Positions 52,722-55,163 of a stretch of 64,000 bases of DNA are shown piece after piece. Within the stretch, counting starts at the first letter, position 1. Every line of letters begins with the position of its first letter. The position numbers and the translations under genes were made by a program. The stretch comes from Geoalkalibacter subterraneus. GTDB lineage: Bacteria; Desulfobacterota; Desulfuromonadia; Desulfuromonadales; Geoalkalibacteraceae. The notes under the pieces are model-generated. The model saw nothing but the letters and a program-made list of their open reading frames with translations. It had not been told where the DNA came from and did not search any database. The stretch lies in assembly GCF_000827125.1 (NCBI RefSeq), contig NZ_CP010311.1, forward strand, positions 2,170,001-2,234,000. The letters run 5' to 3'.

Positions 52722-53321
52722 TTATGGGCGTTTCAAGATAAAATCAACGGCTGCCGCCAGGTCGGCGAAACGGGTGACTTTGCCTGCAACCTCCTCCGAC
52801 GCCTGTGAACCATATCCTGTCAATACCAACAATGGGGTGCAGCCTGCAGCAACGCCAGCCTCAATATCCGAGGCTTTGTCCCCCACCATATACGATTGCG
52901 CCAGATCGATCCCATGCTCTTCTGCCGCCTGCAACAAAAGACCGGGCTTGCCTTTGCGGCAGTCGCATTCCTGCCGATATTCCCCCTGCCCTTCGGTCGG
53001 ATGGTGCGGACAGAAATAAAATCCATCAATGTGGGCACCGAAATAAACCAGTTCCGACTGCAGGTGTTCATGCAGGGCCTCAACCGCTCTCGGCTCGAAG
53101 TATCCCCGTGCAATCCCGGCTTGATTGGAGACGACCAGCACAACAAACCCCGCATCATTCAGGTGGGAGATAGCTTCGGGAGCGCCGGGGATGAATTCAA
53201 AATCCTCGACCCGGTGCAGGTAGTCTTTCTCCACGTTGATGGTGCCGTCGCGGTCGAGAAAAACCGCTCTGCGGAGCGGATTTTCTGTGAGGAGTGAGGG
53301 GTGAGGAGTGAGGGGGGTCAA
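52722..53321 (-). CDS. gmhB: D-glycero-beta-D-manno-heptose-1,7-bisphosphate 7-phosphatase
   Basis: The protein has 199 residues with a TTG start overlapping the previous stop (TTGA). HAD motif 'AVFLDRDGTIN' (about 19-29), 'LVVSNQAGIARG', zinc loop 'CPHHPTEGQGEYRQECDCRKGKPG', and 'MVGDKASDIEAG'. The first 12 residues are read from inverted heptamer repeats (53287-53314), so the original start was probably lost or replaced when the neighbouring small gene inserted. It works with HldE in ADP-heptose synthesis. Confidence 0.93.
   Translation of the reverse strand: MTPLTPHPSLLTENPLRRAVFLDRDGTINVEKDYLHRVEDFEFIPGAPEAISHLNDAGFVVLVVSNQAGIARGYFEPRAVEALHEHLQSELVYFGAHIDGFYFCPHHPTEGQGEYRQECDCRKGKPGLLLQAAEEHGIDLAQSYMVGDKASDIEAGVAAGCTPLLVLTGYGSQASEEVAGKVTRFADLAAAVDFILKRP
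53287..53314 (-). repeat. Left heptamer repeat (GTGAGGR x4) flanking the four-helix gene
   Basis: Four exact tandem heptamers GTGAGGA/GTGAGGG on the plus strand. The other side of the gene has four in the opposite orientation (53674-53701). The array encodes the first residues of GmhB. Confidence 0.85.
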
Positions 53322-53680
53322 TTTGCTACCTTTCCCTTCAGGGAGTTCATCAATCCGCCGAATAAGCTAAAAATACGTTCGATTCGGTTCTGGATATTCC
53401 TAGTATCGTTCAAATAACCCAAGTCTTTGGCAAGAATAATCTGTGTATCCAATTCGCTTAAAGAACCCCGAGCAATCGAAAGAAATTGCAAAAATTCTTT
53501 TGGCCCCATACGGCCAGCTCCCTCAGCGATGTTGCTTGGGACCGAAATAGCTGCACGCCGCATTTGGTTGGTTAGAGAATAGACCTCATCGCGAGGAAAT
53601 TTTTCTGTCGCCTCGTATATTTCTCGTACCAAGATCATTGATTCTTGCCACAGCCTGAGGTCATGATGTTTTCGCCTCAC
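53318..53680 (-). CDS. Four-helix-bundle protein (23S rRNA intervening-sequence protein family)
   Basis: The protein has 120 residues with a GTG start at 53680, itself part of a heptamer repeat. 'HHDLRLWQESMILVREIYEATEKFPRDEVYSLTNQMRRAAISVPSNIAEGAGR' and 'QFLSIARGSLSELDTQIILAKDLGYL' match the TIGR02436/IVP four-helix family, first known from insertions in 23S rRNA. It splits the heptose operon. Its flanks show the signs of an inserted small mobile unit. Biochemical role unknown. Confidence 0.92.
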   Translation of the reverse strand: MRRKHHDLRLWQESMILVREIYEATEKFPRDEVYSLTNQMRRAAISVPSNIAEGAGRMGPKEFLQFLSIARGSLSELDTQIILAKDLGYLNDTRNIQNRIERIFSLFGGLMNSLKGKVAN

Positions 53681-53701
53681 TCCTCACTCCTCACCCCTCA
53701 C
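53674..53701 (+). repeat. Right heptamer repeat (inverted, x4)
   Basis: CCTCAC-type heptamers, the reverse complement of GTGAGGC/A/A/G. It supplies both the GTG start of the four-helix gene and the last residues (REG) and stop codon of hldE. Confidence 0.85.
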
Positions 53702-55163
53702 GGTATTGTTGAAGAATTTTTTCAACAAGACCTGTCGTCGATTTTCCGGCAACAAACTCAATAATTTCCACGCGGCCGCCGTAGCTTTCGACAATCTCCT
53801 TGCCGACGACTCCCTCGGGGGAGTAATCGCCGCCTTTGACCAGAATATCCGGCTTGACCGCACGGATCAGCTCCAGAGGAGTATCCTCGTCAAACAGGCA
53901 GACATAATCGATGCAATCGAGGGCAGCCAGGATATGGGCCCGCTCGTTTTCGCCGATCAGGGGGCGCTTTGGGCCTTTGAGACGCTGAACCGACTGGTCG
54001 GAGTTGAGGCCGAGCACCAGCAGGTCGCCAAGCCTGCGCGCTTTCTGCAGGTACTGAACGTGGCCCGCATGCAGCAGGTCGAAGCAGCCGTTGGTAAAGA
54101 CAATGCGGCGTCCCTTTTCACGCTCACGTTCAAGGGCGACGCTGAGCACGTCCCGCGTCTTGATTTTCAGATCGCTGTCGCGGTGACTGCGGCCGACTGT
54201 TTCGAAAATTTCCTCGGCAGACACAGTCGAGGTGCCCACCTTGCCCACCACAATGCCCGCGGCGACATTGGACAGGCGCGCGGCCTCTTCCAGTGAAAAC
54301 CCGCACGCCAGGCCGGCCCCAAGAACCGACAGCACCGTATCGCCCGCACCGGTGACATCAAAAACTTCCTTCGCCTCTGTGGGCAGGTGAATTTCGTCCC
54401 CATCACGGATGAAAAGGGACATCCCCTCTTCACTGCGGGTCAACACCAGGGCGTCCAGGTCAAGGGATTGGCGCAGCGTTCGACCGGCTTCGACCAGGTC
54501 GGTCTCGCTACGGATCTCAATCCCCGATGCGACTTGCGCCTCTTTGCGGTTCGGAGTCAACAGGGTTGCGCCACGGTATTTTTGGTAGTCGTTGCCTTTA
54601 GGGTCGACCAGAACCGGAACGCCTTTTTCCCGTCCAATTTCAATAATCCCGCGCAGCACCTCTTCACTCAGGACCCCCTTGAGATAATCCGACAGAAGGA
54701 TAACCTGAAACTGGTCAATTCGATCGCGGACAAAATCCACCAGCACCCTGCCCTGGTCATCGTTCACAGGAGTGCGGCTTTCGCGGTCAATGCGCAGCAT
54801 CTGCTGATTGCTGGCCAGGATGCGTGTTTTGCGGCTCGTGGTGCGTCCTGGCACGGCGACAATGCCTGCATCGTCGATATTTTTCTCGGACAGCATTTGT
54901 CGCAGAACCTGGCCATCGGCATCGTCGCCGACAACACTCGCCACGGAAACCCGGCACCCAAGAACCACGAGATTGTTGATGACGTTGCCAGCCCCGCCCA
55001 GGCGTAGATCCTCGCGCTGCACCTCCACGACCTGCACCGGCGCTTCAGGAGAGATCCGGTCGGTTCGGCCCCAGACGTATTCATCCAGCATCAGATCCCC
55101 CACCACCAGGATGCGGGTGCCGGGGAGATGCGTCATAAATTTTTCAACCAGAGTGCGATTCAT
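53691..55163 (-). CDS. hldE: Bifunctional heptose 7-phosphate kinase / 1-phosphate adenylyltransferase
   Basis: The protein has 490 residues. The ribokinase-type kinase domain covers 1-315 ('VVGDLMLDEYVWGRTDRISPEAPVQVVEV', 'EVFDVTGAGDTVLSVLGAGLA'); the nucleotidyltransferase domain about 345-490 ('VFTNGCFDLLHAGHVQYL'). It carries out two steps of ADP-heptose synthesis. Its C-terminal REG-stop comes from a heptamer repeat, so the tail has been remade by the neighbouring insertion. Confidence 0.95.
   Translation of the reverse strand: MNRTLVEKFMTHLPGTRILVVGDLMLDEYVWGRTDRISPEAPVQVVEVQREDLRLGGAGNVINNLVVLGCRVSVASVVGDDADGQVLRQMLSEKNIDDAGIVAVPGRTTSRKTRILASNQQMLRIDRESRTPVNDDQGRVLVDFVRDRIDQFQVILLSDYLKGVLSEEVLRGIIEIGREKGVPVLVDPKGNDYQKYRGATLLTPNRKEAQVASGIEIRSETDLVEAGRTLRQSLDLDALVLTRSEEGMSLFIRDGDEIHLPTEAKEVFDVTGAGDTVLSVLGAGLACGFSLEEAARLSNVAAGIVVGKVGTSTVSAEEIFETVGRSHRDSDLKIKTRDVLSVALEREREKGRRIVFTNGCFDLLHAGHVQYLQKARRLGDLLVLGLNSDQSVQRLKGPKRPLIGENERAHILAALDCIDYVCLFDEDTPLELIRAVKPDILVKGGDYSPEGVVGKEIVESYGGRVEIIEFVAGKSTTGLVEKILQQYREG

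What the first reader, a model, noticed from the sequence alone, without database searches (positions are those of the whole stretch)
53287..53701. Four-helix-bundle gene as a tiny mobile unit bounded by inverted heptamer arrays
Seen: exactly four GTGAGGN heptamers on one side and four inverted ones on the other; the unit splits the hldE-gmhB operon, and the repeats supply the end of HldE, the start of the small gene and the start of GmhB, with overlapping stop/start codons. Known: the protein family (IVP, TIGR02436) occurs as insertions in 23S rRNA. Inference: an undescribed mobile or retro-type unit that keeps neighbouring genes readable.
Basis: partly seen in the sequence, partly recalled or inferred. 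Interest (0 to 1): 0.65.

Follow-up and report, generated by a model that had tools for sequence, protein, structure and literature searches.

The report
Tiny mobile gene bounded by heptamers
A 0.4-kilobase unit made of one small gene between mirrored arrays of a seven-letter repeat sits inside a sugar-pathway operon; relatives in many bacteria have the same build with other repeats, and plasmids with and without such units indicate that they move as one piece.

Summary
Four GTGAGGN heptamers (53287-53314) and four inverted ones (53675-53701) bracket a four-helix-bundle gene (PF05635/TIGR02436) between hldE and gmhB; hldE ends, and the small gene starts, inside the repeats.

The build is general. 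Of 65 related genes from many phyla, 42 have inverted flanks by a simple score, against 5 of 170 other ORFs in the same loci; a second, partly overlapping sample gives 17 of 27. The unit is mostly 7 nt and differs between lineages. Nine genomes with GTGAGG-type genes hold 6-138 GTGAGG dimers, 42 others 0-14.

In cyanobacterial plasmids one such unit lies at three sites, with homology ending at the arrays; empty sites lack arrays and gene together. At hldE-gmhB, five lineages are occupied, one holds a decayed copy and 19 genomes are empty. The protein is under purifying selection and folds like the 23S rRNA intervening-sequence proteins and Avd.

Mobility of the family is well supported, the mechanism is not: reverse transcriptase was undetected in 9 of 24 carrier genomes, and the unit encodes no transposase. 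My reading is that the protein recognises its own heptamers and recruits host enzymes.

The parts
53287..53314 (+). array of four direct GTGAGGN heptamers; outer end of the unit on the gmhB side; read on the minus strand as codons of GmhB's N-terminus
   Evidence: sequence, repeat search, 6 matches vs 0.02 expected
53318..53680 (-). four-helix-bundle (S23 / 23S rRNA IVP / Avd-like) gene, 120 aa, GTG start inside the right array
   Evidence: PF05635 and TIGR02436; model pLDDT 95, close to 2GSC
53675..53701 (-). array of four inverted heptamers (the last cut to 6 nt); outer end of the unit on the hldE side; carries hldE's stop and the small gene's start
   Evidence: empty junctions in relatives lack it
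53691..55163 (-). hldE, upstream neighbour; last residues and stop lie in the array
   Evidence: NF008454 E 4e-165; ORF
52722..53321 (-). gmhB, downstream neighbour; in-frame TTG overlaps the small gene's stop and reads through the left array
   Evidence: NF006506 E 1e-57; ORF; start codon inferred

Best explanation
It is one member of a widespread family of very small mobile elements: a single gene for an Avd/S23-type four-helix-bundle protein, bounded at both ends by inverted tandem arrays of a lineage-specific short repeat (mostly 7 nt, often of the form RGTNNNN read into the element). Gene and arrays enter a site together, often at the stop/start junction of neighbouring genes, and the array ends can supply stop and start codons so that the operon stays readable. 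SHOWN for the family: conserved architecture, occupied and empty sites, different sites for one unit family with homology ending at the arrays, decay by internal deletion that leaves both arrays, purifying selection on the protein. INFERRED: the protein binds its cognate heptamers (as DNA or as the RNA hairpin) and directs host enzymes to move the unit, and scattered gene-less arrays of the same heptamer are relics or non-autonomous partners. The window copy itself is not shown to be active.
For: Inverted flanks (score >=12) in 42 of 65 loci vs 5 of 170 ORFs of the same loci, and 17 of 27 in a partly overlapping sample; period 7 dominant. Units about 80% alike at three plasmid sites, homology bounded by the arrays. 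Empty sites without arrays: A (L150, L152), B (L153-L157), C (L159-L161), D (L162). hldE-gmhB: 5 lineages occupied, 1 remnant, 19 empty; L165 intact vs its sister L195 with an internal deletion and both arrays kept. GTGAGG dimers: 6-138 per genome in 9 genomes of that type vs 0-14 in 42 others; a second heptamer behaves much alike. Heptamer similarity tracks protein similarity, Mantel r 0.43, p 0.0005, unchanged after GC. RGT in 31 of 41 heptamers vs 16 expected, reverse motif ACY in 0. dN/dS 0.016-0.05 in four pairs.
Against: No catalytic domain was found in the protein and no transposase lies in the unit. A short target duplication is plausible at site A only, ambiguous at B, not readable at C and D. 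No second copy of the window unit was found in its genome. About a third of loci lack clear inverted flanks by my score (23 of 65, 10 of 27), and only 41 of 74 pass a stricter test for a 7-nt unit on both sides; the own-genome L001 and L027 fail it. G050 holds 11 AGTCYAA dimers though the gene that brought it in has another repeat. Heptamer-protein correlation can come from shared descent alone. Genome-wide arrays could spread without the protein. At hldE-gmhB, one old insertion with many losses fits as well as repeated gains.
Confidence: 0.6

Rival explanations
1. RNA-level intervening sequence: the inverted arrays pair in the transcript, RNase III cuts the stem, and the operon mRNA is separated into hldE and gmhB parts, as in the 23S rRNA IVS; movement, if any, is by reverse transcription of the released RNA.
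For: The unit folds with the arrays as a 26-bp stem with one mismatch, -151 kcal/mol vs a mean of -117 for 100 shuffles, z -6.2. The Coxiella 23S IVS has the same make-up: S23 ORF, tandem heptamers before its start, 28-bp terminal stem, cut by RNase III (PMC4990558, abstract and passages). The fold resembles Avd of a retroelement.
Against: RVT_1 undetected in 9 of 24 carrier genomes. In plasmid L148 the gene is antisense to both neighbours, so excision from the host transcript would not serve its own expression. Cutting in the stem would also hit the translated ends of hldE and gmhB (inference).
Confidence: 0.15
2. Regulator with a regulon: the protein is an RNA/DNA-binding ring that binds tandem heptamers beside many genes (TRAP-like, recalled) and regulates itself through its own arrays; the gene moves only by ordinary recombination between arrays.
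For: Strong purifying selection; same-heptamer dimers at 30 separate sites in the own genome; the five chains of 2GSC would suit a ring.
Against: At sites A-D the empty DNA has no array, so array-to-array recombination would not have placed the units there. The gene is often absent: 19 empty junctions; no match to this protein in 79 of 136 genomes of the order, drafts included.
Confidence: 0.15
3. Passive cargo of a Y1 (REP/RAYT-type) or other transposase acting in trans on the inverted arrays.
For: Y1_Tnp found in 20 of 24 carrier genomes; inverted short repeats around a gene plus dispersed gene-less copies resemble REP/RAYT systems (recalled).
Against: Y1_Tnp undetected in 4 of 24 carriers (G017, G031, G039, G048); G031 and G039 lack RVT_1 too. 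The heptamer tracks the small protein; whether it tracks any Y1 enzyme was not tested.
Confidence: 0.1

Closest known systems
23S rRNA intervening sequence (IVS) with S23 protein, e.g. Coxiella burnetii (PMC4990558: outline, abstract and passages seen)
   Same: same protein family name; inverted terminal repeats of similar length (28-bp stem there, 27-nt arms here); tandem heptamers next to the ORF, varying in number between strains; called a selfish element
   Different: sits in 23S rRNA helix 45; here in protein operons and plasmids, at many sites, with lineage-specific heptamers and base-resolved empty sites
Dispersed heptameric repeats: GGGNATC / GGGGA(C/T)T in Xanthomonas and Nostoc (PMC4692102: abstract, introduction, homology section, discussion read); TAACTGA in Beggiatoaceae (PMC4679880: passages seen)
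   Same: 7-nt tandem arrays, mostly intergenic; in PMC4692102 a preference for four units, singly or as inverted pairs
   Different: in the parts seen neither paper links them to a gene-bearing element; PMC4679880 has no occurrence of 'four helix bundle' or 'S23' in its main text
Avd of diversity-generating retroelements (4DWL, 8UBE)
   Same: similar fold: TM 0.77/0.84 to 4DWL at Foldseek probability 1.00 but E only 0.22; weak NF033474 match below cut-off
   Different: no reverse transcriptase, template or variable repeat in the unit
REP/RAYT systems and REPINs (recalled; PMC3116915 and PMC2817692 seen in search listings only)
   Same: gene between inverted short repeats, dispersed gene-less copies of the same repeat
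   Different: RAYT is a Y1 transposase; here no catalytic domain is recognised, and the repeats are tandem heptamers, not palindromes

Membership tests
Four-helix-bundle / S23 / 23S_rRNA_IVP protein family | match above curated cut-off | tested here: met
   PF05635 126 bits (cut-off 33.8), TIGR02436 123 bits (cut-off 24)
Four-helix-bundle / S23 / 23S_rRNA_IVP protein family | four-helix bundle fold | tested here: met
   model pLDDT 95, TM 0.92 to 2GSC
23S rRNA IVS | located in 23S rRNA | tested here: not met
   lies between hldE and gmhB
23S rRNA IVS | terminal inverted repeats forming a stem | tested here: met
   27-nt arms, 93%; folded stem
23S rRNA IVS | excision by RNase III | not testable with these tools
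   needs RNA
Diversity-generating retroelement | reverse transcriptase beside Avd | tested here: not met
   neighbours are hldE and gmhB; the two RVT_1 hits of the genome lie elsewhere
Diversity-generating retroelement | equivalog match to Avd (NF033474) | tested here: not met
   21 bits, cut-off 80
Mobile genetic element (family level) | same unit at different sites with defined ends | tested here: met
   L145/L146, L147, L149
Mobile genetic element (family level) | empty sites | tested here: met
   sites A-D; hldE-gmhB
Mobile genetic element (family level) | target-site duplication | tested here: inconclusive
   GTAATWAA on both sides at A; ambiguous at B; not readable at C, D
Mobile genetic element (family level) | own transposase or recombinase | tested here: not met
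   only one gene, no such domain
REP/RAYT | Y1 transposase between the repeats | tested here: not met
   the gene is PF05635

The most novel reading that the evidence does not exclude
A class of transposase-less mobile elements: the Avd/S23-type protein is itself the mobility factor, recognises a heptamer code that drifts together with the protein, and the long-unexplained heptameric repeats of Nostoc, Xanthomonas, Beggiatoaceae and others, as well as the 23S rRNA intervening sequences, are copies, relics or non-autonomous offspring of these elements.
Probability: 0.35. Interest if true: 0.9.

Novelty: new variant of a known kind. Interest (0 to 1): 0.75.

Why it matters
It would join three open puzzles in one testable frame: what the widespread 'four helix bundle / S23' proteins do, where genome-wide heptameric repeats come from, and how 23S rRNA intervening sequences arose. 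It also gives exact empty and occupied sites with which movement can be tested, and shows a way in which inserted DNA can keep an operon readable by supplying stop and start codons from its own ends.

Tried and rejected
Arrays as pre-existing targets that the gene entered: rejected for sites A-D, whose empty forms have no array. Chance repeats: rejected. Recent copies in the own genome: none found; the six PF05635 hits (four over the cut-off) lie apart in score and flanks, and the 20 fetched of 29 other GTGAGG sites show arrays without the gene. Orientation clue: both neighbours co-directional at 47 of 57 loci vs 207 of 273 control pairs, not significant (p 0.31). Rfam on seven loci: seven matches, all below their families' gathering scores. 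Literature: the listings showed no paper that links these genes to heptamer-bounded elements in general; three papers were opened. The library is open-access only, and the paper that I recalled on very small mobile repeats in cyanobacteria is not held, so print elsewhere is not excluded.

Limits of counts. The 65 loci are those of 70 with enough flank; they were drawn by short peptides of the window protein, so they lean to its nearer relatives; the control ORFs are mechanical. The script stopped with an error after printing its statistics, which are the ones used. The sorting of genomes by repeat type for rests on my reading. In one search the reversed-pattern control is not clean in the GTGAGG genomes (15, 57, 20, 22, 2, 10, 19, 31 and 0 in the same order as the counts), because GGAGTGNGGAGTG also occurs in GTGAGGA arrays; in G012 it equals the count. 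In one search the control is high in G035 (75) and G041 (12). may share genomes (L168 and L057 give the same junction). Heptamers were called at 41 of 74 loci; the other 33 (weak, 8- or 9-nt, or no array) were left out of the Mantel and RGT tests. Synonymous distances are partly saturated. The tree used 30 of the 39 rows (four duplicates, two cut-off and three with another next gene left out); for the count of changes L203 and L220 (short unexplained gaps) were not counted, and three rows with another gene after hldE (L198, L204, L208) were counted as empty. Not all empty plasmid records were fetched: A 2 of 6, B 5 of 6, C 3 of 6, D 1 of 1 of those listed.

Full report
OBSERVATION. The unit is as described: four GTGAGGN heptamers at 53287-53314, four inverted ones at 53675-53701, and between them a 120-codon gene on the minus strand. 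In the 64-kb window GTGAGGNGTGAGG occurs only here (6 matches, 0.02 expected). The gene is PF05635/TIGR02436; the neighbours are HldE and GmhB. HldE's stop and the small gene's GTG lie in the right array; GmhB seems to start at a TTG overlapping the small gene's stop and to read through the left array. In L165 an ATG just after the small gene's stop is followed by the same array-coded residues, which supports this reading.

A GENERAL ARCHITECTURE. By eye, other members of the family in the same genome and GTDB family also lie between inverted short-repeat arrays, but with other units: GGGACGC, GGGGCGA, AGCGAGG, TTTGTCA-like and others; of these L001 and L027 fail the stricter test. A scan of public genomes gave 70 loci from many phyla (flanks). 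Of the 65 with enough flank, 42 have an inverted match score of 12 or more between left and right flank, against 5 of 170 other ORFs of the same loci (Fisher p 3e-24); direct matches are 8 of 65 and 10 of 170. Random placements give 0.5% of 390. A period of 7 (at least 16 of 21 positions on either side) is seen in 57% of the loci vs 12% of control ORFs, period 8 in 14% vs 6%. A second sample from the order-wide search gives 17 of 27 (29 tried, two with short flanks); it may share genomes with the first.

HEPTAMERS ARE LINEAGE-SPECIFIC AND MATCH THE GENOME. In 51 genomes, GTGAGGNGTGAGG counts are 97, 138, 41, 48, 12, 67, 46, 31 and 6 in the nine genomes whose gene is bounded by GTGAGG, and 0-14 in the other 42 (rank test p 2e-7; the 14 is G033, whose reversed-pattern control is 52). 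The reversed pattern is itself frequent in most of the nine (0-57), because it also fits GTGAGGA arrays, so the contrast between genomes is the test, not the control. A second heptamer, AGTCYAA, gives 8, 23, 3 and 18 in the four genomes of that type, 11 in G050 (brought in by a gene with another repeat), 0-4 in the other 41 of 46, and 0 in the seven GTGAGG genomes among them. Over 41 loci with a clear unit, heptamer distance follows protein distance (Mantel r 0.43, p 0.0005; same after GC). 31 of 41 units contain RGT read into the element (16 expected from shuffled letters) and none the reverse ACY. Shared descent alone could produce the correlation.

MOBILITY. In cyanobacterial plasmids the same unit (about 80% nucleotide identity between sites) lies at three sites: A (L145, L146), B (L147, L163, and L158 with a shorter annotated gene and about 0.3 kb more DNA) and C (L149); the alignment holds from array to array and collapses outside. 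Plasmids with the same flanks but without the unit were found for each: A L150, L152; B L153-L157; C L159-L161; and for a fourth unit that splits nrdB from nrdA (L148), L162. These empty sites have neither gene nor arrays. At A, GTAATAAA and GTAATTAA flank the unit where the empty site has one GTAATTAA, a possible target duplication; B is ambiguous because the array itself resembles the target; C and D could not be read. L151 holds an array and part of the gene at A, seemingly a decayed copy, and L157 holds a different unit one gene further on.

THE WINDOW SITE. Of 39 locus rows examined for the hldE-gmhB junction, nine rows are occupied and come from five lineages (window; L057/L168; L165; L166; L167, the rest being duplicates), one has a remnant (L195), 19 are empty, two have short unexplained gaps (L203, L220), six have another or no recognised gene next and two are cut off. 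The empty ones include all five other genomes held of the window's family. On the HldE tree occupancy changes at least five times (28 rows counted), which fits repeated gain, or one old insertion with many losses. L165 and L195 are sisters: L195 has lost most of the gene by internal deletion and kept both arrays, which shows how gene-less inverted pairs can arise. In the own genome 5 of 30 sites with GTGAGG dimers hold both orientations, the window unit among them and one in the opposite sense.

PROTEIN. Three pairs at one site and one pair at another have dN/dS 0.016-0.05 (some dS saturated). The model (pLDDT 95) matches XCC0516 (2GSC, TM 0.92, E 8e-9), BT_0352 (2RLD, E 0.006) and, with weak E-values, Avd (4DWL, TM 0.77/0.84, E 0.22; 8UBE, E 0.30). 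No catalytic domain is known to me in this family.

MECHANISM. As RNA, the arrays pair into a 26-bp stem with one mismatch (z -6.2). The Coxiella 23S rRNA IVS carries the same parts: S23 ORF, tandem heptamers of variable number before it, and a 28-bp terminal stem cut by RNase III (PMC4990558, abstract and passages). A resident reverse transcriptase seems not required for carriage (undetected in 9 of 24), nor a Y1 transposase (undetected in 4 of 24), though absence from drafts is weak evidence and past presence cannot be excluded; the 24 are part of the 51 genomes in hand. I favour recognition of the heptamers by the protein with host enzymes doing the chemistry; that step is inference.

COMPARISON. 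In fold and parts it is nearest to the rRNA IVS and to Avd, but it is neither in rRNA nor part of a DGR. In layout it works like REP/RAYT (recalled), but without a transposase. Papers on heptameric repeats (PMC4692102, sections named above; PMC4679880, passages) describe the arrays but, in what I saw, no associated mobile gene.

Noticed in passing
L005 (own genome, C1:3399546-3402848): A weak PF05635 (Avd-like) ORF beside an RVT_1 match (C1:3399875-3400504) with similar repeated segments on both sides: looks like a diversity-generating retroelement.
   Followed up: no
L123, L128, L131, L134, L138 (own genome): Several GTGAGG array sites share further sequence (loops like CTCTTCACTCTTTACG and a stretch near GATCCGTGAGATCGCCAGG): a MITE-like dispersed repeat linked to the heptamers; no Rfam match at gathering score.
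   Followed up: partly
L125, L127, L137, L142 (own genome): Long one-way arrays (about 17 units in L125 and L127) and other short repeats (GCATCAC in L142, CCCCAAG in L137).
   Followed up: no
L221 (Anabaena sp. 90 plasmid pANA02): A unit of this family with GTGACAG repeats sits between cas6 and cas4.
   Followed up: no
L027, L028, L029 and L003, L031, L032: One site is held by quite different units in different species (L027 vs L029, 42% protein identity, other repeat), while another site is shared by three species in two genera: some junctions seem favoured.
   Followed up: partly
own genome: 26 Y1_Tnp matches, including seven with identical scores on contig 1 (likely IS copies) and longer RAYT-like ones.
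   Followed up: no
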